33,819 nucleotides of DNA. Source: Clostridiales bacterium. Its GTDB lineage: Bacteria; Bacillota; Clostridia; Oscillospirales; UBA644. Both the position numbers and the translations under genes were made by a program. Position 1 is the first letter of the stretch. Each line of letters begins with the position of its first letter. Under the pieces are notes generated by a model. That model did no database searches. It had not been told where the DNA came from and saw only the letters and a list, made by a program, of their open reading frames with translations. The DNA lies in the NCBI GenBank assembly GCA_016281805.1, contig JAEEJJ010000051.1, positions 1-33,819 of the forward strand, in the 5' to 3' direction. Below are positions 8,432 through 32,434 of this stretch, one piece after another.

Positions 8432-8560
8432 TTTACTTCTCCTTTTGATTGAAAGAATTAATGGGTTATGCAAATTGGGACGTGCCTGGTAATTTCAATA
8501 ATTAATATATAGTGAAGCAACATTTTTCCATGCTCGTGTAATGAACTGCAGGGGCTATGA

Positions 8561-9004: not shown

Positions 9005-9905
9005 CTTTTCTGACCTCCATCAATGATGCGATTTGCGTTTCAAGTTCTCTTTTTTCTCTTTCGCATCGAGCGGAGCGCAAGCGCAATTCTGCCAGATATT
9101 CTTCGGTTTTATTTCTATCATTTAAAGTATCAGCCGCATTGAAAGGAAAACCTGAGCGGATTTGCTCGATTTCGCGTTCAACCTCTTTTCGTTGGACATC
9201 ATATTTGTGAAGCATATCAAGCACAATCTGGTCTTCTTCCAAAGGTGCAAAGGCTTTGTATAACTTTTTGGCAAGATAATAGTCTGTTGATAATTCAGTA
9301 GCAATTTCGAGGTAATCTGCCCGACGTTCATCAACAGAAGAATCTTGATTATCCTGTATAACAGGAATGCCGCTGAGATCTAATGGTTTAAAAAGCATAT
9401 TATAGATTAGCTTCATTGACTCAACATCCTGCATGCTATATGCTTCGACGGCTTTTTGATATAATTCCTTTTGCGTGTCACTCAAACCTGGATTCATAGC
9501 CGGATGAAAAGAAGCAGTTATCTCCCGGTATTGTCTTTGCAATGTATGCAACTGTTGTTCATCTAATTGCGGAAGCTCATTCAATGTCTTATCTGCTTTT
9601 TCCAACGCAGAAATCCGGGCTTGTTTTTCTTCCTCCAGTCGTGCGTCTATAGCTTCAAGGTCTATCGGTTCTCTTCGATTGATTGCAATTTGAATGATTT
9701 CCACTTTTCTGTGCAAAACAGCTACTTCAAGCTCTGCCTGCAAGACGGGTTCCTCATAGATCCCGATTGTATCCATATATTTCTTTCGAAGCTGGGGAGC
9801 TTCTGCATATAGTGCTCTGTCACGACTTTCATATAAATTGATCAATGCCATGCGGCTGGAAGCAATTTCCCGTAACAGCCAATCATAAAAGGTTTGTACA
9901 CGCAT
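8997..9905 (-). CDS. Coiled-coil protein with degenerate J-like motif
   Basis: A 302-residue protein with no clear named family. Long helical, charged segments are seen at about 50-120 and 225-302, suggesting coiled coils. In the middle (about 122-168) is YREITASFHPAMNPG followed by a helix with ELYQKAVEAYSM, which resembles the helix II-loop-helix III part of DnaJ-like domains, but the HPD tripeptide needed to stimulate Hsp70 is HPA. It may therefore be a structural J-like adaptor, not a true co-chaperone. The start ATG shares one base with the TAA of the upstream AAA+ gene, and the stop overlaps the HIRAN gene start, so all three are co-translated and probably form one complex. Confidence 0.7.
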   Translation of the reverse strand: MRVQTFYDWLLREIASSRMALINLYESRDRALYAEAPQLRKKYMDTIGIYEEPVLQAELEVAVLHRKVEIIQIAINRREPIDLEAIDARLEEEKQARISALEKADKTLNELPQLDEQQLHTLQRQYREITASFHPAMNPGLSDTQKELYQKAVEAYSMQDVESMKLIYNMLFKPLDLSGIPVIQDNQDSSVDERRADYLEIATELSTDYYLAKKLYKAFAPLEEDQIVLDMLHKYDVQRKEVEREIEQIRSGFPFNAADTLNDRNKTEEYLAELRLRSARCEREKRELETQIASLMEVRKDG

Positions 9906-11449
9906 TAAGCTAAACCTCCTATTGCTATTATAATGTCATCAGAAGTAATAATCTCTAAATCTGAATCAGAGAAACTGCTTTGTTTTGCTATTCTATCTGC
10001 TTGCGCATTGATAGCTTTTTCAAAGATATTGCGTGCTGTCCGCGCATTTCCGAAATGCTCGTCACGATTTTCGTAAAGCTCGTTGAATTTTGTCATTAAT
10101 CGTTCAGCTGCATTCGAATCTAATTTATAACCACTCTTTTCGCATAAACGGTTGAATATCGCCAACAGTTCTTCGCCTGAATAATCCGGATATTCAAAAT
10201 ATTTACTGAAGCGTGAAGACAAGCCGGGATTAGATTTAATAAACTTGTGCATCAGCTCTGTATAACCGGCGACGATCACCACAAGTTCGTCTCGGTGGTC
10301 CTCCATGGCTTTCAGGATTGTATCGATTGCTTCCCTTCCGTAGCTGTCGTCTGTATCACCTGCAAGAGAATATGCCTCATCAATAAACAAAACCCCACCC
10401 ATAGCTTGTTGAATTACTTTCTGAGTCTTTATTGCAGTCTGTCCCAGATAGCCTGCCACAAGCGCGCTTCTATCTGTTTCGACAAGTTGACCACGAGGCA
10501 GAATACCCATGTGATAGTAAAGTTTTGCAACAAGCCGCGCAACAGTTGTTTTGCCTGTTCCGGGATTTCCGGTAAAGACAAGATGATACGAAATTGTTGG
10601 AACTTTCATTCCCCGTTGCTCACGAATTTTTGTGACCTTAATAAAGTTCATCAGACTATGAATATCTTGTTTGACGTTTTTGAGCCCGACAAGACCGTCT
10701 AATTCAGCAAGCAGACTTTCCATGGTTTCACTTTCATTCGTTACGGGCGTGGCCACAACCGAAGCCTCCTCTGGCGCGACGGACTGTGTATCGTCCTTTG
10801 CAACCGCTGATTCTTCATTTGCAACAAGATTGATGTTGATAGTCATGGGAGCGGTAGAATTTGTTGAAGAATCCATATGCGACTCAGATTCCTTCTGACT
10901 TTTCTTCTTTCTGGCAGCTTCAAGCAATGCTTCATTTTGCAGATAGCTGTTTTCGTTCTTTTCGGTTATTTTTGCCATATTATCGGGTGCGGGAGAAATA
11001 GTTACGCCATTATTTGCAGCGTAATCGACAAGACTCTCTGTGATAGCAGAGACACACGTGGCTTCTTCCGTTGTAAAATCTCCGTTTATCATTGCAGATC
11101 CGACGAGCAGGTCATTCAGTTTTTCAATGAATTGGCTCGAATGACGGCTTGCTGACAATTTATCAAGATCTACAATACGTTTAAAGAAATCCGGAACAAG
11201 AATTTTGCGTTCCGGATCACCACAGCATCCCATTGCAGTAACAACCTGTTCAATTGTATAGTTTTCACCTGATAAACTTGAAAGAAGCGAAGCATAATCC
11301 ATGGAATACAGCAGATTGCTTCCCCAGATCTTCAGCACACTGGCAATGAAGTATGTGGAAAATGATTCATCTGTAGCCTCGGGATCTTTTTCTTTCAAAA
11401 AATCAAGGAAATGGCAGTATTCTGTTTTCAACTCCGCGAATTTGTCCAT
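9905..11449 (-). CDS. AAA+ ATPase of CbbX/CfxQ type with TerB-like N-terminal region
   Basis: A 514-residue ATPase. The start at 11449 (MDKFAEL) has GGAG nine bases upstream; the track start at 11476 lacks a site. Residues ~1-140 are helical and acidic with a GDFTTEE motif like TerB-type stress domains. A low-complexity linker follows. The C-terminal half is a CbbX-like AAA+ module: LVGLKNVKQDI, Walker A GNPGTGKTT (Lys ~300), Walker B VLFIDEAYSL (Asp ~357), sensor region VVIVAGY, arginine-finger-like NPGLSSRF, and a lid with FGNARTARNIFEKA. Such ATPases remodel protein partners (Rubisco activase CbbX, EccA of ESX). Here the partner is probably the coiled-coil or HIRAN protein. Membership in the BREX operon is uncertain because of the 169-nt gap upstream. 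Confidence 0.88.
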   Translation of the reverse strand: MDKFAELKTEYCHFLDFLKEKDPEATDESFSTYFIASVLKIWGSNLLYSMDYASLLSSLSGENYTIEQVVTAMGCCGDPERKILVPDFFKRIVDLDKLSASRHSSQFIEKLNDLLVGSAMINGDFTTEEATCVSAITESLVDYAANNGVTISPAPDNMAKITEKNENSYLQNEALLEAARKKKSQKESESHMDSSTNSTAPMTININLVANEESAVAKDDTQSVAPEEASVVATPVTNESETMESLLAELDGLVGLKNVKQDIHSLMNFIKVTKIREQRGMKVPTISYHLVFTGNPGTGKTTVARLVAKLYYHMGILPRGQLVETDRSALVAGYLGQTAIKTQKVIQQAMGGVLFIDEAYSLAGDTDDSYGREAIDTILKAMEDHRDELVVIVAGYTELMHKFIKSNPGLSSRFSKYFEYPDYSGEELLAIFNRLCEKSGYKLDSNAAERLMTKFNELYENRDEHFGNARTARNIFEKAINAQADRIAKQSSFSDSDLEIITSDDIIIAIGGLA

Positions 11450-11458
11450 ATTATTTAT

Positions 11459-11462
11459 CTCC
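11459..11462 (-). promoter_or_regulatory. Ribosome binding site deciding the AAA+ start
   Basis: GGAG (minus strand) nine bases before the ATG at 11449. It favours MDKFAEL over the upstream in-frame ATG at 11476. Confidence 0.65.
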
Positions 11463-11618
11463 GTCGAACAGATCATTGCAGAACATCATCTTTTCAATAC
11501 TTATACGCTTGTTTATAATATCTCTTTTATATTTTTACATAAGAGCAAGTTAAAGTGCCTTCAATATGTTTTATGCTTTTAAAGGTTGGATTAAGCCATG
11601 TATGGCTCTATTTTTACA

Positions 11619-12776
11619 TTACACTTTCTTTGCAGCGGTCAAGATTTTCATTATGCCGTCTGCGATTGCGTCACAATCTTCAATTGTGTTGTTCTTTCCA
11701 AGTGAAATTCGTATGGTTCCTTTAGCGTACTCCTCATTCAAGCCTATGGCCTTGAGAACATGAGAAACTTGAGTGGTCTTTGTATCGCATGCGGCGCCGG
11801 TTGAAACACATATACCCATTAGATCCAAACGATGAAGTAGCATTTCGCCGTCAGCGCCCTTGAATGATAAGCTTAACAATCCGGGCAAATGGTTTTCGCT
11901 TCCGTTTCTGATAAAATCAAGATTATAGTTTCGCAATTGGGTTACAAGTCTATCCTCCAATGATGAAAGATGCGCCATATTCTCATTCAACTTGACAGTA
12001 TTGTTTTTTAGAGCTACAGCCATTCCAACAATTCCAGCAACATTCTCAGTTCCGGCTCTCCTGCCTTCTTCTTGAGAACCTCCATCATTGTGAGGATAAA
12101 GGTTTCGACCGCGATCATACAGGAAGCCTACTCCCTTAGGGCCATTGAACTTATGAGCTGAAGCGGATAGCAAATCGACGCCAAGCTCCTTAACATCGAT
12201 CGTTATATGACCAACGGCCTGAACAGCGTCTGTATGAAAACATGCTCCCATGCTGTGAGCAGCGGTTGCCAGTTCTTTGATTGGTTGAATAGTTCCTATT
12301 TCGTTATTTGCCAGCATAACTGATGAAAAGAATGTCATACAAGTGCAAATAGGCTTACCGTGCCAATCCAATGATTTTTGCAAATCTTCCGAAGATACAA
12401 CGCCACTTTTGTCAACAGGAAGGTATACGATTGAGTGAAGCTTATCTAAATTCTTACAAGCATTCAATACTGCATGATGCTCAATAGCTGAAGTCACAAT
12501 GACCCTTACATCTCCGGGAGAACCACCATAACACTTTATAGCCCAGTTGTCGCTTTCAGTTCCTCCTGAGGTAAAAAAAATCTGCCCTGGTTCTGCGTTT
12601 ATACATTCAGCAATGGTCTTGCGTGCTTCCATAATTGCTCTTTGAGCTTTTTTCCCAAAGAGATATGGCTGAGAAGGATTACCATACTCTTCAAGTAAGT
12701 ATGGCTTCATCGCTTCAAAAGCATCAATATCAAGTTTTGTTGTAGCCGCATTGTCGGCATATATTAGATGCCTCAT
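11619..12776 (-). CDS. Cysteine desulfurase (NifS/IscS/DndA-like)
   Basis: PLP enzyme that takes sulfur from L-cysteine and carries it as a persulfide to a partner. The start at 12776 (MRHLIYADNAATT) is set by GAGG five bases upstream and by the family's N-terminal YADNAATT motif; the track start at 12824 is unlikely. Length is 385 residues. Visible motifs: GGTESDN, SAIEHHAVL, the PLP-contacting HTDAVQAVG, the Schiff-base Lys in SASAHKFNGPKG (~K209), RRAGTENV, and the catalytic Cys in STGAACDTKT (~C330) followed by SHVL. It is the last gene of the BREX-like operon. In Dnd and Ssp phosphorothioation systems the same enzyme type (DndA/SspA) feeds the PAPS-reductase-like protein, so the likely acceptor here is the BrxP homologue. 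Confidence 0.95.
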   Translation of the reverse strand: MRHLIYADNAATTKLDIDAFEAMKPYLLEEYGNPSQPYLFGKKAQRAIMEARKTIAECINAEPGQIFFTSGGTESDNWAIKCYGGSPGDVRVIVTSAIEHHAVLNACKNLDKLHSIVYLPVDKSGVVSSEDLQKSLDWHGKPICTCMTFFSSVMLANNEIGTIQPIKELATAAHSMGACFHTDAVQAVGHITIDVKELGVDLLSASAHKFNGPKGVGFLYDRGRNLYPHNDGGSQEEGRRAGTENVAGIVGMAVALKNNTVKLNENMAHLSSLEDRLVTQLRNYNLDFIRNGSENHLPGLLSLSFKGADGEMLLHRLDLMGICVSTGAACDTKTTQVSHVLKAIGLNEEYAKGTIRISLGKNNTIEDCDAIADGIMKILTAAKKV

Positions 12777-12783
12777 ATAAACC

Positions 12784-12981
12784 TCATTTGAAGAGTGTGC
12801 AACCCTCTTCTTTGAATTCTTCAATTTTAATCTCTAAGTCTTTGACATCGCATGCAAATGTATCTGCAAGGCAACGAATACATAGAAAAGATTGATCATC
12901 TCGATTCAACAATTTTTTGTGAAGAGCAATCCAATCCTTTTCTAAATGAGTTCCACAATTTCGACATTTTTTATTTTGCAC
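12784..12981 (-). CDS. Small zinc-ribbon protein
   Basis: A 65-residue protein with two CxxC knuckles, CRNC (6-9) and CIRC (34-37), separated by 24 residues, the layout of a treble-clef or zinc-ribbon fold. The start is GTG at 12981, overlapping the end of the brxL-like gene, with GGAG eight bases upstream. It ends 7 nt before the cysteine desulfurase start, and the desulfurase ribosome binding site lies in this gap. The tight coupling on both sides indicates a real gene. The function is unknown; a small metal-bound adaptor between the ATPase and the desulfurase is one guess. Confidence 0.75.
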   Translation of the reverse strand: MQNKKCRNCGTHLEKDWIALHKKLLNRDDQSFLCIRCLADTFACDVKDLEIKIEEFKEEGCTLFK

Positions 12982-14473
12982 GATACTGCTCCTTTATAGT
13001 AATGTCTGGAATTGTTAATCCTCCAAATTCACCTCTATCAATTATACCAAGCTGTGTTTTAATCACTCTTCGCATCTCCAACGCAGGTTCAAGACAATAT
13101 GATTCAAACAGATTAATATCTACTTTGCTTACATCTGTAGCGTTTGGGAACAAAAGTTTCAAGTAACCAGTGCATATTTTTTTTATTGCCTCCGTATCTC
13201 GTGTCGCAGAATTTTTGGGTAGTTGAAGTAATTGATCTACTACTGCCCGATATGACAGTTCTTCTCTTAAAAAGTGCATTATTTCGCCAAAATACTCTGT
13301 ATTCAGAGCCCATCCATTTGCTTTTAAACTCTCTTTCATTTTGGGAATATCCCAGCCTTTGATAAACCCATGGAATCTATCGATCAAAGCTGATTCGTGG
13401 AATATATCAGGCAGATTAATAAACATATTTGTGTTTATATTCATTAGCTCCGAATCAATGTTACCGAGAAGAATAAATCCAGCATCACCGACACCTCGTG
13501 TATCACCTACTCTATATTCACCCGTAGGACTTTCCAAATACCCCTTTAAGGCTCCTTGCATCTCCATAGCATCTGTAAACTTGATGCTTTGTATCTCATC
13601 AAGTGCAACATAATCATAACGTGATACAAGACCAGGAGTTCTTTTACTAATATCATAGAACATTTTTGCCCGAGATATGCTTCCCCCGCTAACCAACCAT
13701 CCGTATTTACTTATTTGAGCATATACATACGATTTACCAGTTTCCTTGGGAGCAAGCTCAATAAGGTTTATCCTTTTTTCAACAAACGGAAGAAGCCTGC
13801 TGATCATTGTCATTTTTTGCTTTGTGCTAATATACCCGTTAGGATTATAGTCTATCGCGCTTAACAATATGTCAAGCCACTCGTCAATAGAAAAGAATTG
13901 TCTTGCGTTTGTATAATAATCTAAATCAATAGTATAAGGACAGAATGGCTGAAAATCGATCAATTTAAATACACTGCTGTTATTCTCCTCTTCAGCGACT
14001 ATTTCAACAATTCCCCAAACTTCTGTAGGAGAAAGCAGATAATCTCTATTTGCCTCAATAACATCCCATTCAACAATTGCCTCTCCTTTTTTTTGAGGTA
14101 CTCCAAAATCTGGTAGAGAAAAAAGGGCCCGTCTGTTTTTAGCATCAAAATCAATCTTAATTTTAGTTAAAAAACGAGCTGCTTGGTTGTTGTGAAGCAT
14201 ATCTACCTGATATTCATTCCACTGCTCTTTATTTGGAATAATTCGTTTAACATAATTCGAAACTTCTTTTTTATCAATTGCCCCATTTGAATCTGAAAAG
14301 CGCATAACAAGCCAGTCTCTCATAAAGGAAGGCAGGCTTAAAGCAGAAAAAAACTTAGAATTTGAAGACGACTTGTATACAAGCATGTCACCAAAGTATT
14401 GTTTAAGTTTTGTTTCATACTCAATGTCTGTCCCAGAATTAGAGGAGGGAAAAATCACCCTGTTTATATCCAT
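12971..14473 (-). CDS. brxL: BrxL-like AAA+ protein lacking the Lon protease domain
   Basis: A 500-residue protein resembling the N-terminal and ATPase parts of BrxL, the Lon-related DNA-binding ATPase of BREX. The N-terminal region (~1-150) includes MRDWLVMRF and an ELAPKETGKS motif follows (241-248), then LVSGGSISRAKMFYD, Walker B YDYVALDEI (~286-294), GYLESPTGEYRVGD, a sensor-like FILLGNID, and a lid with RFHGFIKGWDIPK. The Walker A has Ala where the first Gly is expected. Canonical BrxL continues into a Ser-Lys protease domain to about 670-700 residues; none is visible here. A good site (AAGGAG) precedes the ATG, and the gene follows pglZ by 11 nt. Family call is from motif memory, not a search. 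Confidence 0.8.
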   Translation of the reverse strand: MDINRVIFPSSNSGTDIEYETKLKQYFGDMLVYKSSSNSKFFSALSLPSFMRDWLVMRFSDSNGAIDKKEVSNYVKRIIPNKEQWNEYQVDMLHNNQAARFLTKIKIDFDAKNRRALFSLPDFGVPQKKGEAIVEWDVIEANRDYLLSPTEVWGIVEIVAEEENNSSVFKLIDFQPFCPYTIDLDYYTNARQFFSIDEWLDILLSAIDYNPNGYISTKQKMTMISRLLPFVEKRINLIELAPKETGKSYVYAQISKYGWLVSGGSISRAKMFYDISKRTPGLVSRYDYVALDEIQSIKFTDAMEMQGALKGYLESPTGEYRVGDTRGVGDAGFILLGNIDSELMNINTNMFINLPDIFHESALIDRFHGFIKGWDIPKMKESLKANGWALNTEYFGEIMHFLREELSYRAVVDQLLQLPKNSATRDTEAIKKICTGYLKLLFPNATDVSKVDINLFESYCLEPALEMRRVIKTQLGIIDRGEFGGLTIPDITIKEQYRAK

Positions 14474-14484
14474 TTTTTGTCTCC

Positions 14485-16806
14485 TTAAATATTGAACTTA
14501 TCATTCTGTTTGATGGCTTGATTAACCTGAATCTCAAACTCTCCAAGTATTCTTTCATCGCTAATTTTAACTGTCAAAGTTGTATCCTTTTTATCGGGAA
14601 TGAATAAAAATGAATAGGTTCCGTTATCCCATTCACATTTTGTCACGGTTCCCTTTATTTTAGCAGAAATATTTTTTCTCTTAATACCGCTGATAGTAAA
14701 TTTAACTCTTATTTGTTTAGTACCGAGTTCAGGTGTGTATTTTGTTTCTTGAGGTTTAATAACAACTGTTTCTTCTTTTTTATCCGAAATATATCTTTCA
14801 ATACACACTATTGGAACAAGCCATTCTTCCAATGATGCTCCGCCATGGATTTCGTCTATAGGGGCACCGGTTTGAATAAAACGAGTATAATCTGCGAAGA
14901 TAAGTCTATCATTATAACATATGGCTGTTGGATAATTTAATTCTTCCCCATCGCACTCACAGAACCTGCCATATTTATAAATATTTTTATTCACCGGTTT
15001 TGGCAAGACTTTATCATATTTTGTGTTTCGAATCTTAACTGCCATTCTGCTTGTCCCATGATCCGCAGTGATTATAATGCGATGAATACTACCGACAAGC
15101 AAACATAAAACACGATCTTTCAGCGAGTCGAGGATTTGTAATTGTTTAATAAGACTTTCCGGATGAACATTGTTTGAGTGTTTGAGTTCATCAAGCTCTC
15201 TTATTGGCGGATCAACAGTTTTTCTTCCATCCATGAAATCTTTATTGATCCCAGTAATTGAAGGTAAATTGCAGAAGCCAGCCTCATAAGAAACGATATA
15301 TTCTTTTTCATCCAAATCTGAAAATATATGAGACAGGTAATCAACGTATTCGATTCCAAGTCCGTCAACAAACAAAATTAAGGTGTTATCATCATAATGT
15401 TCATTAACATAGTGATTACGAGGTTTCATTGCAAATACAGATGTGCCTTTTTCGATGGCAATACGATTAACCTTTTCAAGAAAGTCCTCACTTATTGCGT
15501 CGGTGACTTTTAACCATTTATACTCATTGAAGTATTGTTCGTGTAGTGAAGTTAAAGATGTCACATTGGGGTGCTCATCATTCTGAATATAATAGTATAA
15601 ATCAGAATAAACCATCTTTAGGATGGGAAGAACACGGGTACATTCTATATAATTATAGCCTGAAACTATCTCGAATATGGTTTTCCGCTCTATGTCTGTT
15701 AAACAGGTAAGACATGAAAGTGCATCTATTTTATTGAGCACATTGATTTTACCCCAAAAACGTTCTGTTGGGACGGATTTCATTCGAGCAAGAATACTTT
15801 TTCGTTCTTCATATAAAACCGAGAAATTGACTTCTTGAAGATGGAGAATTATGCCGCAGTATAGTTCATCAAGAAATTCAGATAAAGCATGACATGATTT
15901 AGCGGATTTTATCTCATATCTATTTGCTGATTGTTGCCTTGTCCAGAGCCACAAAACCCACTTTTGGAATAAACTGTAATTGCTCCATTGGTTAAATAAG
16001 GATGATGAGTATTTGTTAATTGATAAAATGCTTCGGCAAGCGCTTTCAAATGAGCCTTCTTTCACAATGACCTTCGCCAGCTCATTCCAATTATCTTCAG
16101 TTCCCAATTCTTCATTCATGCTTGTTGGAAGTCCATACTGATATTTGATGAGTTCAAAAGATGTGACGATTACATGAACATCGTCAAAAAAATGATTTTT
16201 CTCAAAATGAATCGCGTTTTTTGTATGAAGAATAAGAGGTTTGTCTGGATTTGATTCCCAATATTCGAGATAATTTTTGAAGCCTTCAATCTCGTTTCCA
16301 GGAAGCTTTACATCAAGTTCTTTCTGTACAATTGTTAGTCTGTAATCACTTTCCTCATTAGTTTCAAAAAGGACAACACACTCTTTAGCTCTCGGATCAT
16401 ATGAAGGCAGAGTTCGAAGCAGGCTCTTCATCCTGTACATCAGAAAATATATTCTTAATGTTCCATTATCATTATTCTGGTAATCAGTCTTGATAAACCT
16501 AAGAATTATACTTTCAGCATATTCTGGAATAATTCTCAAGTATTCAGAAAGCGGGGTGATAAGTTGTGACTGATTTGCCTTTTTCAAAGCAGAACCAAGT
16601 CGATTGATATTGGGAGTTGTATCTGATCCTTCACAGAACTTAGAAAGAGTCATAGATGCATCAGTCAATGAAAGCAATATTTTTTTAACATCAACCCATG
16701 CCTCCATAGAATCGACATTAACGAATCTAATTGGGTTGAGTGATTTACTTTTTGAATCATTTATCAGAAATTGTTCTAAGCTCTCCAAGTTCTTAAATGA
16801 GTTCAT
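14485..16806 (-). CDS. pglZ: PglZ-domain protein (BREX phosphatase-like)
   Basis: A 773-residue protein with an alkaline-phosphatase-superfamily domain in its C-terminal half: LILFVDGLGIEYVDYL (metal-ligand Asp ~481) and IIITADHGTSRM (Asp-His ~582-583). These are the two PglZ signature sites. The N-terminal ~450 residues are helical and unassigned; the last ~100 residues form a beta-rich tail. PglZ is the one component common to all BREX types, and purified PglZ proteins have been linked to phosphodiesterase/nuclease activity. AAAGGAGG stands before the ATG. The gene lies 15 nt after brxC and 11 nt before brxL, fitting BREX order. Confidence 0.92.
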   Translation of the reverse strand: MNSFKNLESLEQFLINDSKSKSLNPIRFVNVDSMEAWVDVKKILLSLTDASMTLSKFCEGSDTTPNINRLGSALKKANQSQLITPLSEYLRIIPEYAESIILRFIKTDYQNNDNGTLRIYFLMYRMKSLLRTLPSYDPRAKECVVLFETNEESDYRLTIVQKELDVKLPGNEIEGFKNYLEYWESNPDKPLILHTKNAIHFEKNHFFDDVHVIVTSFELIKYQYGLPTSMNEELGTEDNWNELAKVIVKEGSFESACRSILSINKYSSSLFNQWSNYSLFQKWVLWLWTRQQSANRYEIKSAKSCHALSEFLDELYCGIILHLQEVNFSVLYEERKSILARMKSVPTERFWGKINVLNKIDALSCLTCLTDIERKTIFEIVSGYNYIECTRVLPILKMVYSDLYYYIQNDEHPNVTSLTSLHEQYFNEYKWLKVTDAISEDFLEKVNRIAIEKGTSVFAMKPRNHYVNEHYDDNTLILFVDGLGIEYVDYLSHIFSDLDEKEYIVSYEAGFCNLPSITGINKDFMDGRKTVDPPIRELDELKHSNNVHPESLIKQLQILDSLKDRVLCLLVGSIHRIIITADHGTSRMAVKIRNTKYDKVLPKPVNKNIYKYGRFCECDGEELNYPTAICYNDRLIFADYTRFIQTGAPIDEIHGGASLEEWLVPIVCIERYISDKKEETVVIKPQETKYTPELGTKQIRVKFTISGIKRKNISAKIKGTVTKCEWDNGTYSFLFIPDKKDTTLTVKISDERILGEFEIQVNQAIKQNDKFNI

Positions 16807-16821
16807 ATTTTCCTCCTTTTA

Positions 16822-19800
16822 TTAACCCTTGAGAATATTGATGCCCAAAACAGGATTATTGTCTATCAATTCATCAAGATACCGTTGAGCTTGCTCTGCA
16901 GTCATCTTTTTGATACGTTCTTTTGCTTGAGAACGATATTTCAGTTGATATCGTTCTGTAGCAAACTGACGGATTGCTGCCTTACAACCGCTTGCCTTTG
17001 CATACCAATCATAGACATTTGTCCCAGCAACAGATCTCAATACATCTCTTAATTCGTCTGCTGAAGTGACTACATATGAATACTCTTCGGCGAAGTACTC
17101 TATAAATGTCTTTGTGCAGCATTCCATATCCTTAAGTGCATTGAGTTTACCGCTGTTAAGAAATTCTATGGCATCATCTGAATCTTTTTCCGTGGGGAGA
17201 TACGAGGTCTTGTTGAGCGCATCAAAGACTTTCTGAGCCTCGAGAATATCATTTGAAAACATACACAAAACAGGAATACCCTTTTTCTTTGACCAATCTG
17301 CAGGATTTAAGGAATCTGTTTGCTTTTCCCAAATATCATACATTTCCCTTATCTTTTTTGATTTGCGGAAATTGGTCAACTCATGTTGCATTTTTGTAGT
17401 AAAGCTGTCAGTTGCCTCAAAAATAGTTCCTGACGGTACTTTGTTAAACAATGCCTCATATTCGTCATTTGATAAGGAAGTATGCAAGGCACGATCAACG
17501 GATTTGCAGAATACATCATACTGGTTATTGAAGAACTCGACAAAATCTTCAGCTAAATTTGCTATAATAGTTGAGACTTCTGTCTTATTAAACTGAACAT
17601 TGTCTTTGATTAGGTTAAACTGATCAACAATCGTAATTAGATCCGGTCTGAACTCTTTTAAAAGAGCATATGGAACCTTAACAATATTGAGCTTTTCGAT
17701 TAGAGCTTTTCTTGCTTCTGCGTATGTTTGATGCTTTGTTGTAAGTACGCGGTTAATATCATAAATGAGTTTCAGATCGATATAGAGATTATCAATTTGA
17801 TGGTTAGTATCTCCAATCTCCCAAAGGTAAGATGAATCATTAGACAGCTTCGAATTAAGCAACTCAAGGTATTCTTTCGCTTCAACTTTAAGATTACTTG
17901 CTATTTGAATCAGTTCCGGTTTGTATTGAGCAATGTAATAATTCATCCCGGCACGAAGATTTTCGGCGGTCAGAGCATTGCGGTAAACTTCTTCAATTGC
18001 ATTGTTCTGTTGATATAACCTGAAAATATCTTCAACTATCTTCGAACGATCCCTGTCGATTTTAGACTCAGGTTTAATAAACTCACAAAGCAAAGTTGTC
18101 AATTCAACCATGGCATCGCAATAATCGTGTTCTGCCAAATCCTCTTCAATGAAATACCTAAATGCCCACATGGGATACTTATTGTTCGTGAGATAAATAT
18201 TGATATTTTTTGCAATATCATCAACAGAATTGCGCTTTTCTTTTGCAATCCTGAATATTTCCCCCGTAATCTGGCAGAATTTCATCTGCTCAGGAGTCTG
18301 TCTGACGATGAATTGCCCATGTGACTTGGGAAGATTTTTTACAGTGCCAAATATCAATTCGCTCAAGTCTGAATAATTCAATGAGACAGTATTATTATTG
18401 ATATCGCGCTTATAGTATGTACTGTCAGCATATTCCGCAAGAAGAAATCCGAGGAGAAAAACTGAGCCGGTGTTGGGCAAAAGACCAAACGGAGGCTTCT
18501 TTAGCTCCTTCCAAATGTCAATAATGCTGACCATTGAGCTTTTTTTAAATGCAATGTCAATTATCTCATTTATTGCAATCTTCATTCTGGATGCAGGATG
18601 ATCCGGATGAACTTCCCAATATTTAGGAGTTGACCAAATCCCATCATTACTAAGGTAATTTGAAATGATTCTCAAATACGAATAATTGTTAGGAACGTCA
18701 ATCTTACCCATTGCCATTTGAGCAACAGTTTCCTTGAAACCGCTTTCTGCAAAGAGCTTGTCGTTTTGCGAGATTTCCTCAAGTCCACATCCATAAAACG
18801 CAGTATTTATTTCCCTGAGCTCTCTTCTCAAATTGGCTCCACCGGTCTTTTGAACAGATTTGTCGGGTGCTGAATATACAAACAACGATGTCGTGATCAG
18901 TTTTCTAACCCACTCGTTCAGAATATCAAGTGAGGTTTTTTTCGCTAAATCAAATTGAGATTTCTGATTTGGAAGTGTAGAGAAATATTTTTCCCTTGCC
19001 TTGCTTTCAATAAACTTATCAAATAGGAAATCAGTAAATGGCAAAGATGTAAAATCGACAACAATACATCTTTCTCCGACCTTTTCAAAAATAGAAGCTA
19101 CGGTTTCTTTGACTTTTCCTTGTTCTGCTTCATTCCTTGCAAAGAGGAAAAATGTAGGGATATGGTTTTCTGATGGCTCAATTTTATCTGCTTCTTGTTT
19201 CGCGTTTACAGGTGAAACATTAACTATTCTCATTCTATACTTGAGAAAATCCGTTGGGAGGAACTGCTTTGCAACGTCATAGGAAGAATCAGAAATCACT
19301 TTCTCAAATGTAATGGATTTCCTTGTTTCTTCAATAATCTGATTCATGCGTTCAGTATCGATCGCAGCAGAGGTCATAACAAAGAGAACTTCTTGGGCAC
19401 TCTCGATTTTGCCCAAGATACCTTTTGAAGCAAAATAATTCAGATCCTGTTCAACCGTTGATTCATAGGGTGTTCCGACAAAACAAGCCTTGATATTTAC
19501 AAGGGTAGGACGCATCAAAGAAGTGGCTCCCGTTTTGGCATCGGCTCCGTTTTTGGTCTGAAGTGCAGCGAGAAGCAAGGCCACCTTTAACACTCTACGT
19601 CTGCGGTCTCCTATCATTTCATTGGATGGGTCATCGCAAAGAGGTGCGTAGTTGTTATAATGACTGATTGTCTGTAAAAAGGTGGAATCAAGATCCACAT
19701 TGCTGGATTTGAAAAAATAGTCCCACAGATAGTCCGCGGTCAAGTAATTCCATTTTCCGAATTCAAAGGCAAAGTGTTCTATAAACCATTTGAAGTTGGT

Positions 19801-21036
19801 TTTGTCCTCATCACCAGAGTAGTCGCCGCTCAAAAACTGGAAAATAGTACGCTGATTTGAGCTGATATCTTTTGCTATGAATTTCAGCAAATATGCAGTA
19901 TACGGGTGCATAGGAAGAAGTTTTTTGAAATCCTCATCCTTAATGTTGTAGTCTTTATTCTTTATGACATCTACACTTCCACGTTTAACGCCAGACCATA
20001 GAGATTCGCTTGTGTGCTCCCACTCATTGGAAAGATCAGGCTCGTGTCTGAGCGCCTGACCAAGCAGCGTAAAGGCCGTGCTCTCTTCAAGTTCAATCGT
20101 ATCAAGCTTGAATCGTGCCTCGATGATTGCCTTGGATCCTTTATCCTGAATAAGCTGACTGGCTGAGCTATGAGTAATCAGGAATAAATAGCAACTGATG
20201 CGCGAAGATGCCTGTGCGATTTCCTGCAATCCGGTTATGTTATTCTGATTGTTTTTGAAATACTCTGTAAACTCGTCCCAAATGAAAACGATAGAATAAA
20301 GATTATTGCCCTTGCGGACGTCTTCCAACCAATCAATCAGTTCTTCAGAAGACATCGACCAATTGAATCCTTCAAGCGCTGCAACCTCAATTATCGTGTC
20401 AAGCAGCCCTAATTTATCTTCTAAATCAAGCTCTTCCAAATCTTTGATTATACTATCCACAGAACTGTATTCAGTGAATTTACCGCGATATTTATTGAAA
20501 GCGCCCTGAAAATTAAATGCAGATGTTTCGGGATGTTTCAGCATTGTAAGGATTTTTTCAGCAAGACTTTGCGCGCCAGTATAGGAAAGACCGACATCTG
20601 AAACGGCTTTTCTTACCGACTCAACAATTGAATTAAAGAGCTTATCCTGAGTGTTAATTCCTGCCGAGGCACTTCTTTGAACAACAAGAATTCGCCCTTT
20701 AGCACGAATGCCTTTCACCCTTGCAAGCAGCGAATCCATTCCGTTTTGAGTGAAATACGGGGTTATAGAGTCTATATCGTCTTCTAAAATATGCTTTATA
20801 ACAAACGATGCATAAGTTTTACCGGTTCCGTAAGCACCGCTCATCCACACACTGCGATCTTTTGTTTCGCTGCTTTTCTCGAGAGTTTCAACGATGTCCT
20901 TGAGGATGTTTTTGAAACTTGCATGAGGATAGAAAGACTGCCATTTATCGGGATATATTCTGTCACTGTTTCTGCTGAATACCGGGATAAAGTTTGGATC
21001 GACTTTAATATACTCACTATACAATCTGACTGCCAT
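16822..21036 (-). CDS. brxC: BrxC/PglY-like large P-loop ATPase
   Basis: A 1404-residue ATPase. Near the N-terminus is WMSGAYGTGKTYASF (Walker A, Lys ~73) and then YSIVFIWDEFTEYF (Walker B, Asp-Glu ~254-255), with LFLITHSS after it as sensor; this spacing and the very large helical C-terminal region are characteristic of BrxC/PglY. It probably couples ATP hydrolysis to DNA loading or scanning by the complex. AAGGAG lies nine bases upstream of the ATG. It follows brxP by 13 nt and precedes pglZ by 15 nt. In the type 4 arrangement the same neighbours are expected. The assignment between BrxC and a general DUF499-like ATPase is from context and size. Confidence 0.88.
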   Translation of the reverse strand: MAVRLYSEYIKVDPNFIPVFSRNSDRIYPDKWQSFYPHASFKNILKDIVETLEKSSETKDRSVWMSGAYGTGKTYASFVIKHILEDDIDSITPYFTQNGMDSLLARVKGIRAKGRILVVQRSASAGINTQDKLFNSIVESVRKAVSDVGLSYTGAQSLAEKILTMLKHPETSAFNFQGAFNKYRGKFTEYSSVDSIIKDLEELDLEDKLGLLDTIIEVAALEGFNWSMSSEELIDWLEDVRKGNNLYSIVFIWDEFTEYFKNNQNNITGLQEIAQASSRISCYLFLITHSSASQLIQDKGSKAIIEARFKLDTIELEESTAFTLLGQALRHEPDLSNEWEHTSESLWSGVKRGSVDVIKNKDYNIKDEDFKKLLPMHPYTAYLLKFIAKDISSNQRTIFQFLSGDYSGDEDKTNFKWFIEHFAFEFGKWNYLTADYLWDYFFKSSNVDLDSTFLQTISHYNNYAPLCDDPSNEMIGDRRRRVLKVALLLAALQTKNGADAKTGATSLMRPTLVNIKACFVGTPYESTVEQDLNYFASKGILGKIESAQEVLFVMTSAAIDTERMNQIIEETRKSITFEKVISDSSYDVAKQFLPTDFLKYRMRIVNVSPVNAKQEADKIEPSENHIPTFFLFARNEAEQGKVKETVASIFEKVGERCIVVDFTSLPFTDFLFDKFIESKAREKYFSTLPNQKSQFDLAKKTSLDILNEWVRKLITTSLFVYSAPDKSVQKTGGANLRRELREINTAFYGCGLEEISQNDKLFAESGFKETVAQMAMGKIDVPNNYSYLRIISNYLSNDGIWSTPKYWEVHPDHPASRMKIAINEIIDIAFKKSSMVSIIDIWKELKKPPFGLLPNTGSVFLLGFLLAEYADSTYYKRDINNNTVSLNYSDLSELIFGTVKNLPKSHGQFIVRQTPEQMKFCQITGEIFRIAKEKRNSVDDIAKNINIYLTNNKYPMWAFRYFIEEDLAEHDYCDAMVELTTLLCEFIKPESKIDRDRSKIVEDIFRLYQQNNAIEEVYRNALTAENLRAGMNYYIAQYKPELIQIASNLKVEAKEYLELLNSKLSNDSSYLWEIGDTNHQIDNLYIDLKLIYDINRVLTTKHQTYAEARKALIEKLNIVKVPYALLKEFRPDLITIVDQFNLIKDNVQFNKTEVSTIIANLAEDFVEFFNNQYDVFCKSVDRALHTSLSNDEYEALFNKVPSGTIFEATDSFTTKMQHELTNFRKSKKIREMYDIWEKQTDSLNPADWSKKKGIPVLCMFSNDILEAQKVFDALNKTSYLPTEKDSDDAIEFLNSGKLNALKDMECCTKTFIEYFAEEYSYVVTSADELRDVLRSVAGTNVYDWYAKASGCKAAIRQFATERYQLKYRSQAKERIKKMTAEQAQRYLDELIDNNPVLGINILKG

Positions 21037-21049
21037 AGTTTTATTCTCC

Positions 21050-23398
21050 TTATATCAACGAAAGAACATCGATAGCGGTCTTGCCTTTTTTTCCGGCAGG
21101 CAAATCAATGTTTTCCATAATCCCTTTGTTAAAATCAACTTGGATATAATCGCTGTAGTTATTCGCAAGCCCCTGAAGGATGGGTTTGAGTGTTTCTCTC
21201 TCTATTCCAAAGATCGATCTCGGGCTGAGACCTTCGCGCTCGTCGCTGTCGTCAAGAAGATCTGATAAGGTGAAACTATACATGCCATCCATTTTCTCGG
21301 CAAATAGATAAAGTGTGTAGAGTATTACAATAGGATCTGCATCATCCCATATTCCTTTGGTAACAGAGGTAACATTTTTTCCTTTAACTTCGCATTCTCC
21401 CTGTAGAAGAAGCCACCCGATTGGAGAAAGCCTCAGCGTTTCCTTAAGTGAACTTAATGCATTCTTTTTTACTGTGGGAGAAAACTCATCTCCAAGCAAA
21501 ATCGGAAGATCATCAGCGAAATATGTTCTTCCAACCTCCAGCTTGGTTGCATACCAATTAACTATCGGTGATTCATAACAAAGGTTGGTGTAAATAATTC
21601 CCCAAGTTGTGGGCGAATCGCTACCAAGCTCCCGAAGTTTTGTGCCCAACACCGTTAAAGCGTTATTTTCGGTTATTCCCGACTCTTTAAGCCACGTTTT
21701 GAAACCGACAATCATATACTTGCCCATTCTCTCGTTTGCCCAAAAGTCATCCAACAGTTCGAAATATAATTCCAACCACTCTTGACGAAACCCGAAATTT
21801 TGATATCGACTAATGTTTTTAACGCTCATGTTATTTCCTCCTCCTGTTATTCCAAGCGATCTTGCTGTAATACAACCTTTACTTGAATCCAAGCACCGTT
21901 CACAATGCTTACACCCTTCTATTGTAATATCATCTTTTGAAATTGATAATGCACCAAATGCGCATTCGGCCATACATTCACCGCAGTTTACGCAATATGC
22001 CGCTTTGCTTAGTGCATTTTTGAACAGATACATAAATCTTACTGATAATGGTGATCTTATCAAAGCAGGAAGAGTAAGCACTGTTGCATTCTTCTCAATA
22101 CGTACAGAAAAATCCATGTTTATATCCTTATAGTGGATAGAGTACATATTATCATCAATCTTTACAACGTCGCCTATTGTTGACATCCACTTATCCCACG
22201 CATAATTGCTGTCGGTAACAATCAACTTGACACTATCTTTTGTTTTTATCTCTGTTATTTTATTGCCGCCGATCATTAGTTCCTTTCCGCCGATGCGTGA
22301 TTTCCAACCACCAGACTGAAGATATTTCTGCCTTTCATTAACTGAAGCAAAGGATTTAGTAATACTTGAAGAAACGATGTTAAGCAAAGGTGCCACTTCA
22401 TCAGGATACACATGGTTGATAACACATTCATACCATTCGGACGCCATAGGGCACAACTTACATCCAACCCTATATGCACCATATCGGTACAGTTTGTTAA
22501 AGAGTAAGTGATACTTGAAGATATACAGGAACAGTTCACATGAGCCCCAATCTAAAATTGGACTACAATTATACTGAACAGCATGTTTGTTTCCGTCAGA
22601 TACCATAGTATATGTAGATCTCGCATCGCTTTCTTCTGCTCTAACTCCATCAAATACCATTACCTTGAACGGCTTGGAATTGTCGGGATATTTCTGACGA
22701 TATATTTCCTTGAGTTTTTTTATTGATGGCGCTGTTTTGTGAACGCTACAACACCAACGTAGCTTTCTTGCAGGAAACCCGATTTTTTTCCACGATTCTT
22801 CAGCATTAAAATCCGCTCTTGCTTCGTGCCACTCAAGAGTGTTCCAACGTTGTTTTGCTTCATTAAGGGCATTGTATGTTGTTTGTAATTCCATTGTTGT
22901 ATCGCCGAATACGACAACAAACTCATCATGAGGAATTGCTCTCTGTACAATGTCAAGCATAACAATAGAGTCTTTTCCGCCGCTGTAAGCAACATAAAAC
23001 ATACTAACTCTGGGTTTGTATTCAAGGTAGTTCTTATATGTCGTTTTTAACGTCTTTTGTACCAGGCCATTCATAATACTCTCGTTTTTGAATAGCATAG
23101 TTTCAACGTCCACTGGTTCTATAACCAAATTTTGAACAACATTCTTCAGAATAGGCATTTCATAAAGGCCACCTCCGCTTGCTTCGCAAACAAGCTCTCC
23201 CTTATAAAAATACCTTCGTGCTTCAGCCCACATCAGTGGTTGTTCGCAGTCTGCAAATTTCCAGCCATAGTCTTTATCCAATCCAAGAAAGCGAAGTTCC
23301 TCAAAAAAGACCGGACGAACTTCCTTTGAAACTCCAGTTATTTTTGTAGGTAGGAGTATATATCCACCTGTCGCTTTATCCCATTCATAGTTATACAT
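21050..23398 (-). CDS. brxP: BrxP-like PAPS reductase + ferredoxin + DUF4007 fusion
   Basis: A 782-residue, three-part protein. Residues ~130-330 are an ATP-pyrophosphatase/PAPS-reductase core: P-loop YSGGKDS (139-144), VVVFGDTTME, RWCCSVHK (Cys 216-217) and RVGCKLCP (Cys 313 and 316). The Cys-Cys ... CxxC pattern matches the 4Fe-4S site of APS reductases. Residues ~465-512 form a ferredoxin-like domain with C469xxC472xxC475xxxC479 and C496xxC499xxC502...C509. Residues ~530-782 look like DUF4007 (FGFRQEWLE, TVLGTKL, PTTWGIIY). It belongs to the DndC/SspD/BrxP group that activates DNA or a carrier for sulfur insertion. The ATG overlaps the stop of the HNH-like gene. The DUF4007 fusion and extra Fe-S clusters suggest a self-contained electron supply. 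Confidence 0.9.
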   Translation of the reverse strand: MYNYEWDKATGGYILLPTKITGVSKEVRPVFFEELRFLGLDKDYGWKFADCEQPLMWAEARRYFYKGELVCEASGGGLYEMPILKNVVQNLVIEPVDVETMLFKNESIMNGLVQKTLKTTYKNYLEYKPRVSMFYVAYSGGKDSIVMLDIVQRAIPHDEFVVVFGDTTMELQTTYNALNEAKQRWNTLEWHEARADFNAEESWKKIGFPARKLRWCCSVHKTAPSIKKLKEIYRQKYPDNSKPFKVMVFDGVRAEESDARSTYTMVSDGNKHAVQYNCSPILDWGSCELFLYIFKYHLLFNKLYRYGAYRVGCKLCPMASEWYECVINHVYPDEVAPLLNIVSSSITKSFASVNERQKYLQSGGWKSRIGGKELMIGGNKITEIKTKDSVKLIVTDSNYAWDKWMSTIGDVVKIDDNMYSIHYKDINMDFSVRIEKNATVLTLPALIRSPLSVRFMYLFKNALSKAAYCVNCGECMAECAFGALSISKDDITIEGCKHCERCLDSSKGCITARSLGITGGGNNMSVKNISRYQNFGFRQEWLELYFELLDDFWANERMGKYMIVGFKTWLKESGITENNALTVLGTKLRELGSDSPTTWGIIYTNLCYESPIVNWYATKLEVGRTYFADDLPILLGDEFSPTVKKNALSSLKETLRLSPIGWLLLQGECEVKGKNVTSVTKGIWDDADPIVILYTLYLFAEKMDGMYSFTLSDLLDDSDEREGLSPRSIFGIERETLKPILQGLANNYSDYIQVDFNKGIMENIDLPAGKKGKTAIDVLSLI

Positions 23399-24122
23399 CG
23401 CAAGTTCTTCCCATCTTTTTCTTTAATTCAGAAATCCTAAAAAACTCGATTTTTGAATGTGCTGCTTTATGACATGTTGGACAAACAAACGAGATTGTTG
23501 AAGGCGAAATCACATCCGGCTTTACACAGTCACACAGAGGAACGTCAATATGGATTTCCATCAGGTCAAATCCGGGAAACAGCTTGTTGACCTCACTGCC
23601 GCACACAGAACAATCTTTCCTTTGAAATTCAAGCGTTTTTTTGACTGTATAAACAACTTTATTGGTTCTTTCTAAATAGCAGTGGTATGAAGGTAGCAAC
23701 ATACCAAAAATACAATCTGAATAAGAGTAGTCGATATAGAATTGCTCTCTTGAAATTCTAATAATCGCTTTTGAAATACTGTGTAAAACATCTTGTTTTT
23801 CAATGTATTCATCGAATACTCTTTTTTGTAGTTTCGATCCATGACCGAACTTTGAGCTATTTTCCGGATCACAATATCCAACATTTGCGATACACATTTG
23901 CATTCCTGCAATCGACCGAAATTCCGGATTATCCTGAAATTCAGGATAAAACGGCAATTGACGCATTGCTTTGCTCAATTCTACAATAAGCTCCTTGCGG
24001 TCTGTTGGTGAAGAGACTTTTTTTAACTGAAAGTAGGTATCGACCAGCAGAAGAACCTCATCTACCATCAGAGGTGGCATACGGTCTTTTCGTGTATTGT
24101 TTAATAAATCAGATTTCTGCAC
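23391..24122 (-). CDS. HNH-like protein with possible modification-reader N-terminal domain
   Basis: A 243-residue protein. Its C-terminal ~75 residues have an HNH zinc framework: CSVC (171-174), MEIHIDVPL (190s) and CPTCHKAAH (214-222). In HNH nucleases the middle motif normally reads H-H; here the second His is Ile, so the usual general base appears lost. The N-terminal ~110 residues (MVDEVLLLVDTYF ... LSKAMRQLP ... FRSIAGMQMCIANVGYCDP) resemble the domain preceding HNH in McrA-like restriction enzymes, some of which sense phosphorothioate DNA. The start is GTG with AGGAG six bases upstream; it overlaps the stop of the giant gene and its own stop overlaps brxP. It may be a nuclease, or an inactive reader that guides BrxP. 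The reader role is inference. Confidence 0.75.
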   Translation of the reverse strand: MQKSDLLNNTRKDRMPPLMVDEVLLLVDTYFQLKKVSSPTDRKELIVELSKAMRQLPFYPEFQDNPEFRSIAGMQMCIANVGYCDPENSSKFGHGSKLQKRVFDEYIEKQDVLHSISKAIIRISREQFYIDYSYSDCIFGMLLPSYHCYLERTNKVVYTVKKTLEFQRKDCSVCGSEVNKLFPGFDLMEIHIDVPLCDCVKPDVISPSTISFVCPTCHKAAHSKIEFFRISELKKKMGRTCDV

Positions 24123-27100
24123 AATGTACTCCTGTTGTATCTACATAAAAATACTTTGAACCTTCGAGGAAATTCGGAAGATTTCTTTCAATGAAACCCT
24201 CTTGCTGAAGCCAGTCACGCATTTCTGATTTTGAAGAAAACATTCCATTTTTTACCTTATCAGTCAATATCTTAATAAGCATTGAATCAAAAGTATCATT
24301 CTTGTATTTGTCAGAGACAAATATCGCTGTCGAACGATTCAAGGGGTTACCAAGAGTGTAAAGTATATTGAATTTGCCGCTTTGAATCATTAGGTTTTCA
24401 AGTAAAAATGTATTCCATTCAATATCAATATTCGGAAACCAAATAAACTCGTCAATCTTCGAACAGATAACATAATCATTAACCTTCAACATGTCTGAAA
24501 TTATGGCAACGGCATCGTTGATTGTTTCTTCAGAAATTCCAGTCAGTTCACGCTTCATAAGATTATTCGCATCAATTCTGACATATTGCGGAGCAAGCAT
24601 TTGAGTTAAATAGAATGGAGATATATACTTAATATTGTTGTCTGTACATATATCAATCAGTTCATTAATATCAATCTGATCATAATCTGTGATATGTTGT
24701 AAAATAACGCTTTTGTTTGTTATGTCATTTACTCCAAGCTTAGCAATATACGGCCGTACAAAACTGAACTCACTACCAAACATATAATTGAGCGCGGCAA
24801 ACAGCTTATTGTGACCATCAAAACCATTTCGATATATAAACTCAGGGAATCTATCAGATATTGCATCGTATACAAAGCGAATATTTACCGGAACCTCAGC
24901 GCAAGCCTCTGTAAGATACTCTCTGATTTGCCTGTAGTCACTGGGTTGAATATCAAACGACGATGCGTGAATATAGAATCCGTTTTCTATATTGAAAACG
25001 GTGGAACTGCGCGCAACTACTGCTCCTAAGTTTTTTTCGTTCAGTGATGTGATTTCGGCAAATATCTCAGACTTATGTACAGCGCCTCTTTCTTCAACAA
25101 AAGCATCAAGTTCATCGACAAGAGAAGCATCGTTTGTTTTTCGCACATAGTCTCTGTTGGTGTTAAACCGACACCCGTATTTTTTCAGCGCACCCTGAAG
25201 CAAATATTTGTTGGTTATTTGTGTGCCATCTAAAACACTTGATAAAGCATCAAATATTTCCCCATAGGTCAGCAAGGCACGAGGAGAGTTCTCAATAAAA
25301 TCGTTGATAGATTCGATAATTTCTTCTTTCACCTGGATATAATCAGGATGTATGTATTTACCTCTGTCACAAAGAATTCCAATGTAACCGACCTTTGCAT
25401 CGATAGCTCGATTTGTTATGGATTTTGCTTTATCGCCGAATAGTTCAATCATATATTCTTTGAAACGGTTCGCTTCAAATGAATCGTTGATCTTGAAGCC
25501 AGCAGGAAATCTATAATGTAAAACATAATCACACATAAAAGTAACAGTAATTGGTATTATGGAATAAAATTGACCTGTGACTTTATAATTATTGAAGAAC
25601 ATATTTTGAACGACTTCAAGCGGTGCATTACATTCTTGAGAGACATTTTCAAGAACTTCGTTGACTTCAGAGGATTCAATTGTATGGGGAAGTCGATTAT
25701 AGGCCATTTTAGCATTGGCAATAATCTGATAACTCGTGCTGCCACTTGAAATGACAATTGAATCGAGTTCCCATGAATAAGAATAAAGCGTATGTTCGGG
25801 AATATGTTTAACTGACTTCCAAAGAATGAGCGCAAAATCTCCAAGTATCTCTTTAAGTTCACTCAAATACAAAAATTTATCGCCATCACGCATTGCATAA
25901 ATAAGCAAAATAAGGTCGTATTTTTGATTTTTGTAATATTTCCAAAAATTTCGAGTTATCCTTGCTTCAACCTGGCGAATTCTTTCACGCGTTAAGTTAA
26001 GACGTGATCCTATTTCTTCAAGGCTTTCCCCTCTTATTCTCGATTCTAAAATCTCAATTCCTCTTTTACTTGATGTTTGAAGTCCGCTGCAGATATTGCT
26101 AACGGTTTGACGAACAGCTTCATCAGGATCGAAGTTGATACAATCAACAAATGCTTTTATAGCCACTGCAACTTCACTATCTGGGGCGATACCCATGCTG
26201 ATTATTAAATTGGGGAGCTGGTATATTCTGGTAGAAGAGTCACACATTGAAATAATAGAAGAAAGCGATTTGCCACTGGTTTTTTCGATTAACAAAACAA
26301 GTGGTATTACTCTCCTATCCTTAACGGATTGTGGAAGATTTCTGACTGATTCGCAAACAGAATCTACAAAAGAATCGTATGTTTCAGTGCGTGAAACATA
26401 TCTTCTAAACAAATCACAAATGACTCGAACATACTGTGGATTGTAAAATGCCTTTGAACAGATTTCAGATCCCACAGTTTCAATTGCCGTTTCTATTGTT
26501 TGAAGATATTTCTTTTGGTCGTCATCAAGATTTTCAATTGAATAAGAGGTACCGTTAAGGAGAGAACCAATTGATTTGATTAAATTGTTATCAATTTTTG
26601 TCACTCGCTGAGTTGATTTGTTTTTCTCTAAGCGATGGGAAGCATCGGAAAGGAAGTCTTTTATTTTTGCAACAATTTCATTTATTGACTTTTCCCCCAT
26701 ATTCCGCATCGACCTTAAATCGCTGATGCTTTTAGTCAACAACTCTTTTACCGTTGTGCACTTAGCAATACTCAAACAATTAAGGGCGCGTGAGCTTAAT
26801 TGAAGCTCAGAAACCGGAATACTGTAATTGTTAGAATCAACTTTAAAAATCGCGTAAAAAGGTATTAATTCATCTGATTCAGAATTATTAATTTCAATGA
26901 TTGCTTCGTTGACAACCTCTGATGGCTTCTGTTCATTTTTATTTTCTTCTTCCCGCATACCAGATGCGACAATAGAATCAATATTAATGTCTTCATTGTT
27001 TGCATTAGGATGCAAAACATTTTCTGATGAAATTTGATGTTCAATGTTTATTCTGCTGGATGGATACGATTTTTCAGGAATACTGTTTTGGTTTTCGCTT

Positions 27101-29398: not shown

Positions 29399-29459
29399 AT
29401 TATTAAATATCTCCTTTTCATTTATGCGCTATGTCTTGGTAAAGATTTAACAAAAATCA

Positions 29460-32419: not shown

Positions 32420-32434
32420 AATAATTTTCTCCTT

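What the first reader, a model, noticed from the sequence alone, without database searches (positions are those of the whole stretch)
11619..23398. Type 4-like BREX with a complete in-locus sulfur pathway and no methyltransferase
The gene set BrxP, BrxC, PglZ and BrxL fits BREX type 4, in which PglX is replaced by a PAPS-reductase-like protein. Here the operon also carries its own cysteine desulfurase, and BrxP fuses the APS-reductase Cys-Cys...CxxC site, a ferredoxin domain and DUF4007. That is a full sulfur mobilisation, activation and electron-transfer chain, suggesting that this BREX marks DNA by phosphorothioation or a related thio-modification and not methylation.
Basis: partly seen in the sequence, partly recalled or inferred. 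Interest (0 to 1): 0.85.

Follow-up and report, generated by a model that had tools for sequence, protein, structure and literature searches.

The report
Clostridial type 4 BREX phage-defence operon
This is a good example of an already described bacterial anti-phage system, type 4 BREX, which marks the cell's own DNA by putting sulfur into its backbone; the only less familiar part is two conserved extra genes just upstream of it, outside the flagged coordinates.

Summary
On the minus strand, 11619-23398 encodes a cysteine desulfurase, BrxL, BREX-4-type PglZ, BrxC and BrxP, with no methyltransferase gene. BrxP joins an adenylating PP-loop domain (SGGKDS), an invariant CC...CxxC site, eight ferredoxin-type cysteines and a DUF4007-type C-terminus. 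Every catalytic motif checked is intact. The interpretation (DNA phosphorothioation, not methylation) is very probably right but not new: Yuan et al. (bioRxiv 2024; Nat Commun 2026) report phosphorothioation by BREX type 4, as cited in PMC11931770, PMC12707154 and PMC13326643, and PMC12839542 reports an in-locus cysteine desulfurase in 56% of type 4 loci and the BrxP-ferredoxin-DUF4007 fusion. So this is a well-preserved new member of a known kind. One (24109-27303) carries an RNA-polymerase alpha-CTD and a sigma-70 region-4 helix-turn-helix; it sits upstream of brxP in 8/8 near relatives and in 3 of 5 hits of an independent search. The other (23391-24122) is an HNH-like protein whose BREX-linked copies (5/5) lost the second histidine of the HH motif. 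In other type 4 loci parts of the two are fused. I propose an accessory DNA-binding or regulatory pair, probably not a nuclease.

The parts
11619..12824 (-). Cysteine desulfurase (DndA/SspA/NifS-like, 401 aa); PLP lysine K225 and catalytic C346
   Evidence: PADLOC DndA 3e-121; K225 and C346 invariant in 10 orthologs; the gene after brxL in 6 of 8 near relatives, a fragment in a seventh, absent in L008
12971..14473 (-). BrxL, short form (500 aa; N-terminal domain plus ATPase)
   Evidence: PF20442 and PF13337; PADLOC BrxL 9e-203 against a 482-position model
14485..16806 (-). PglZ, BREX-4 type (773 aa)
   Evidence: NF033445 385 bits, cutoff 140; D481, D582 and H583 invariant in 11 orthologs
16822..21036 (-). 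BrxC ATPase (1404 aa), related to SspC; Walker A GAYGTGKT, Walker B IWDE
   Evidence: PADLOC BrxC 4e-115 and SspC 7e-19; motifs conserved
21050..23398 (-). BrxP (782 aa): PP-loop ATP pyrophosphatase/PAPS-reductase fold (about 133-317), CC..CxxC cysteines, two-cluster ferredoxin-type segment (469-509), DUF4007-type C-terminus
   Evidence: PADLOC BrxP 9e-230; PF01507; invariant motifs in 12 orthologs; DUF4007 hit in one ortholog
23391..24122 (-). HNH/McrA-like protein (243 aa): helical N-terminal module plus zinc-binding HNH-type domain in which the second His of the HH motif is Ile; overlaps brxP by 8 bp
   Evidence: Alignment with plasmid and viral HNH endonucleases; AlphaFold mean pLDDT 87 with 18 sequences; beside brxP in L005, L007 and L009, decayed in L006, and in L109
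24109..27303 (-). Protein of 1064 aa with RNA polymerase alpha-CTD (157-215), sigma-70 region-4 HTH (423-449) and long conserved C-terminal region; overlaps the 243-aa gene by 14 bp
   Evidence: PF03118 1.4e-17, PF04545 2e-6; upstream of brxP in 8/8 BrxP-seeded relatives and in 3 of 5 hits of a search seeded with this protein

Best explanation
It is a type 4 BREX operon. The desulfurase takes sulfur from cysteine as a persulfide. BrxP, guided by its DUF4007 DNA-binding part and by the BrxC ATPase, activates a backbone phosphate of host DNA with ATP through its SGGKDS PP-loop and replaces a non-bridging oxygen by sulfur; its iron-sulfur clusters carry sulfur or electrons. This marks host DNA with phosphorothioates. 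On phage DNA that lacks the mark, BrxC, PglZ and BrxL block replication. The two upstream proteins most likely form an accessory DNA-binding or regulatory pair. Shown here: genes, order, catalytic residues, linkage. Taken from the literature: that type 4 BREX makes phosphorothioates and has antiviral activity. Inferred: the phosphate-activation chemistry, the electron route, how phage DNA is blocked, the role of the upstream pair, and that this copy is active.
For: Family matches for all five genes, including a BREX-4-specific PglZ model. Invariant PP-loop GKDS, CC...CxxC, ferredoxin cysteines, desulfurase Lys and Cys, PglZ D and DH; conserved BrxC Walker motifs. SspC, SspD and DndC cross-matches of BrxC and BrxP link them to known phosphorothioation enzymes. 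Same gene order in the near relatives. Published phosphorothioation by brxPCZL (PMC11931770, PMC12707154) and the desulfurase as potential sixth core component (PMC12839542). No methyltransferase match among the window ORFs scanned.
Against: No sulfur in DNA can be measured from sequence. The contig is from an 83%-complete assembly of unnamed origin. Some type 4 loci lack the desulfurase, so it may be dispensable. The primary paper on BREX-4 phosphorothioation was not held; I rely on papers citing it.
Confidence: 0.9

Rival explanations
1. The operon uses its sulfur chemistry for another thio-modification, for example of a base, a nucleotide or tRNA, and not for the DNA backbone.
For: PP-loop plus iron-sulfur plus desulfurase sets also serve tRNA and base thiolation (general knowledge). 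No product is measured here.
Against: BrxP carries a DUF4007-type part and sits with BrxC, PglZ and BrxL; papers name brxPCZL as one of three phosphorothioate-synthesis families (PMC11931770).
Confidence: 0.05
2. The operon is intact in sequence but silent or non-functional in this organism.
For: Decayed or broken genes occur in relatives: L006 has a BrxP-BrxC-desulfurase remnant and L007 a stop in the HNH-like gene. The system is sporadic: a BrxP match below 1e-60 in only 2 of 20 genomes of the family, this one and one match with an internal stop.
Against: All operon ORFs are full length and every motif checked is conserved.
Confidence: 0.1
3. The upstream 243-aa HNH-like protein is an active restriction nuclease working with BREX-4, like the auxiliary HNH effectors catalogued in PMC12839542.
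For: It belongs to a family of free-standing HNH endonucleases on plasmids, some beside other restriction-modification genes, and keeps the zinc-binding cysteines and final His.
Against: The second His of the HH motif is lost in all five BREX-linked copies (HI, HI, HI, HL, HY) and kept in all 15 viral and 3 plasmid relatives aligned. Four of the eight near relatives have no such gene detected.
Confidence: 0.2

Closest known systems
BREX type 4 (brxPCZL), reported to phosphorothioate DNA (Yuan et al. 2024/2026)
   Same: Same four core genes in the same order, a BREX-4-specific PglZ and BrxP in place of PglX
   Different: Adds the linked desulfurase (already reported for 56% of type 4 loci) and two upstream genes not mentioned in the main-text passages I read
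Ssp phosphorothioation systems (SspABCD)
   Same: BrxC matches SspC models, BrxP matches SspD, the desulfurase matches SspA
   Different: PglZ and BrxL are present; no SspE or SspFGH match among the proteins scanned; the SspB-type DUF4007 part is fused to BrxP
Dnd phosphorothioation (DndABCDE)
   Same: Desulfurase matches DndA at 3e-121; weak DndC match of BrxP
   Different: No DndB, DndD or DndE match; BrxP has an extra ferredoxin segment and, per PMC12839542, this family lacks a cysteine dyad unique to DndC
McrA-like HNH endonucleases
   Same: The HNH-type domain of the 243-aa protein's family aligns with E. coli McrA, 6ghc (2.4e-5 with the viral-relative profile)
   Different: Second His of the HH motif lost; different N-terminal module, and no PDB fold match for the model

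Membership tests
BREX type 4 | BrxP, a PAPS-reductase-like protein, in place of a PglX methyltransferase | tested here: met
   PADLOC BrxP 9e-230; no methyltransferase match in the window ORFs scanned
BREX type 4 | Type-4 PglZ | tested here: met
   NF033445 385 bits, cutoff 140
BREX type 4 | BrxC and BrxL in the same operon | tested here: met
   PADLOC BrxC 4e-115, BrxL 9e-203; gaps of 11-15 bp
BREX type 4 | DUF4007 (SspB/BrxA-like) domain, usually fused to BrxP | tested here: met
   Orthologous C-terminus; PF13182 in one ortholog at 1.4e-5, PADLOC 265-aa BrxP model on residues 530-741; not recognised by Pfam in the window copy itself
BREX type 4 | Phosphorothioate in host DNA and phage restriction | not testable with these tools
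   Needs LC-MS/MS and plaque assays
Dnd phosphorothioation | DndC, DndD and DndE | tested here: not met
   Only the desulfurase matches DndA strongly; no DndD or DndE among the proteins scanned
Ssp phosphorothioation | SspE or SspFGH effector beside SspBCD | tested here: not met
   No such match among the window proteins scanned
SBD-HNH phosphorothioate-dependent endonucleases (considered for the 243-aa protein) | Sulfur-binding domain with HK/HR and YP motifs | tested here: not met
   No such motif pair conserved in the alignment; sequence and fold searches of the PDB do not list 5ZMO or 7CC9
HNH endonucleases (243-aa protein) | HH pair in the first HNH strand | tested here: not met
   EIHI in the window against E[C/A]HH or DVHH in free-standing relatives

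The most novel reading that the evidence does not exclude
Many Firmicutes type 4 BREX systems have an additional conserved module upstream of brxP: an alpha-CTD/sigma-region-4 protein and a nuclease-dead HNH-like protein, fused in part in other loci, that acts as a reader or controller of the phosphorothioation machinery. A member of the same family beside PbeA and PbeC (L113) would tie it to phosphorothioate-based systems more widely.
Probability: 0.35. Interest if true: 0.5.

Novelty: new member of a known kind. Interest (0 to 1): 0.3.

Why it matters
The sulfur-marking idea is correct and independently reached, but published. What remains open and testable is how type 4 BREX controls modification and tells unmarked DNA apart. 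The conserved upstream pair, with promoter-binding-type domains and an apparently dead nuclease domain, is a concrete candidate for that step.

Tried and rejected
1) I first read the 243-aa protein's N-terminus as the sulfur-binding domain of ScoMcrA, from memory. Rejected: SBD motifs (HK/HR, YP; PMC7461809, PMC6224610) are not conserved in it, and sequence and fold searches of the PDB give no SBD. 2) A first structure prediction with three sequences was poor (mean pLDDT 50) and was not used; the second, with 18 sequences, reached 87 but has no PDB or viral fold match below E = 0.001. 3) The AAA, 302-aa and HIRAN genes downstream of the desulfurase were considered as operon parts and left out: no homolog in eight relatives, although several of those loci end soon after the desulfurase. 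4) BrxP close relatives in viral contigs: none found. 5) The BrxP family search over 391 genomes lists 348 matches, nearly all weak hits to PAPS-reductase or ferredoxin parts; eight genomes besides the window have one below 1e-170. 6) I looked for attachment-site repeats of the tRNA-Arg and found none in the window.

Full report
Setting. The window lies on contig C85 (bases 1-33819) of a 2.2-Mb, 83%-complete assembly. The operon runs on the minus strand from 27303 down to 11619.

Observation. Family models identify them beyond doubt: BrxP 9e-230, BrxL 9e-203, desulfurase (DndA) 3e-121, BrxC 4e-115, and a BREX-4-specific PglZ model at 385 bits against a cutoff of 140. Spacing among brxP, brxC, pglZ and brxL is 11-15 bp; the desulfurase follows after 146 bp. 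None of the 18 window ORFs scanned with Pfam matches a methyltransferase family. The rest of the assembly holds one N6_Mtase protein on another contig.

Catalytic residues. In 12 BrxP orthologs (the other 11 are 34-83% identical to the window copy) the PP-loop GKDS, C216C217, C313xxC316 and eight ferredoxin-type cysteines are invariant. The best-matching solved PAPS reductase aligns over the same domain but lacks the SGGKDS motif, which suggests ATP-dependent activation of a phosphate and not PAPS reduction; that is inference. The desulfurase keeps K225 and C346 in all ten copies, PglZ keeps D481, D582 and H583 in eleven, and BrxC keeps its Walker motifs. The DUF4007 claim is supported through an ortholog (PF13182, 1.4e-5) and a PADLOC model on residues 530-741, not by a direct Pfam hit on the window copy.

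Interpretation. Type 4 BREX is already reported to phosphorothioate DNA. PMC11931770 lists dndABCDE, sspBCD and brxPCZL as the three known families; PMC12707154 and PMC13326643 cite Yuan et al. 2024 (bioRxiv) and 2026 (Nat Commun 17:1717). That paper itself was not held. PMC12839542 describes the desulfurase in 255 of 457 taxa (56%) as a potential sixth core component, and the PAPS-reductase, ferredoxin-type and DUF4007 architecture. The desulfurase is the gene after brxL in six of eight near relatives and a fragment in a seventh; L008 (Pelosinus) and the archaeal plasmid L153 show none beside the operon. The assembly has two other full-length Aminotran_5 proteins, so the in-locus enzyme may not be strictly needed.

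The upstream pair. The 1064-aa protein has an RNA-polymerase alpha-CTD (1.4e-17) and a sigma-70 region-4 HTH (2e-6). It lies upstream of brxP in all eight relatives found with BrxP. Because that search was seeded with BrxP, I also searched 399 genomes of the phylum with this protein: five matches below 1e-40 besides the window, of which three are directly upstream of brxP (L109, L110, L112), one is beside PbeA and PbeC (L113), and one (L111) shows no BREX gene nearby. The 243-aa protein is present in L005, L007 (with an in-frame stop), L009 and L109, decayed in L006, and not detected in L003, L004, L008 and L010. In the more distant type 4 loci L043, L046 and L047 a single protein joins an N-terminal module like that of the 243-aa protein (hhalign E 1.6e-6, probability 90%) to a C-terminal region like that of the 1064-aa protein (E 2.8e-19, alignment also including L045). 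L041 has an upstream gene that did not match either family, and in L042 and L153 no such gene is seen.

Is the 243-aa protein a nuclease? Its free-standing relatives are annotated HNH endonucleases, and all 15 viral and 3 plasmid ones aligned keep the HH pair. The five BREX-linked copies read HI, HI, HI, HL and HY. I infer loss of the general base and a binding or structural role. It does not match the ScoMcrA sulfur-binding domain by sequence or fold. Whether it recognises phosphorothioates is unknown.

Mobility. Of 20 genomes of the same family only two have a BrxP match below 1e-60, one of them interrupted, which fits horizontal spread. An integrase, an ERF recombinase and a full-length Cas12a gene lie in the same window.

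Verdict. A well-preserved new member of type 4 BREX, correctly read, with a published mechanism. The upstream pair is the only part that may be new, and that could not be settled because the primary paper and supplements were not readable here.

Noticed in passing
window 3669-8473: Type V-A CRISPR: Cas12a of 1270 aa (4661-8473, minus), an array of ten exact 36-nt repeats at 3750-4361 plus a degenerate one upstream, and a Cas4 fragment (4324-4698; 99 of 178 model positions) that runs into the last repeat. No Cas1 or Cas2 found among the ORFs scanned.
   Followed up: partly
window 8561-11476: Three overlapping minus-strand genes downstream of the desulfurase: HIRAN-domain protein (matches PADLOC candidate PDC-M03B), 302-aa protein with no family, and a SpoVK/CbbX-like AAA ATPase. 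Not found in the BREX-4 relatives; possibly a separate defence candidate.
   Followed up: partly
window 28250-33199: Tyrosine-type integrase, 449-aa protein with a P-loop-like start (GSGKSS) and no Pfam family, weak OB-fold protein and ERF recombinase upstream of the operon: mobile-element or prophage genes. No attachment repeat of the tRNA-Arg (3259-3335) was found in the window.
   Followed up: partly
L113 (G773:C33): A 1327-aa protein of the alpha-CTD/sigma family (3.9e-44 to the profile) directly upstream of PbeA and a PbeC/DndD-like ATPase, i.e. beside another phosphorothioate-based defence module.
   Followed up: partly
L003 20707-21240 and L007 21758-22333: An ORF starting just after the desulfurase in two relatives whose start resembles a WYL-type regulator by eye; both reach the end of the locus held.
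   Followed up: no
L006 9995-13102: One frame runs from BrxP into a piece of BrxC and the end of the desulfurase: a collapsed type 4 operon or an assembly error.
   Followed up: no
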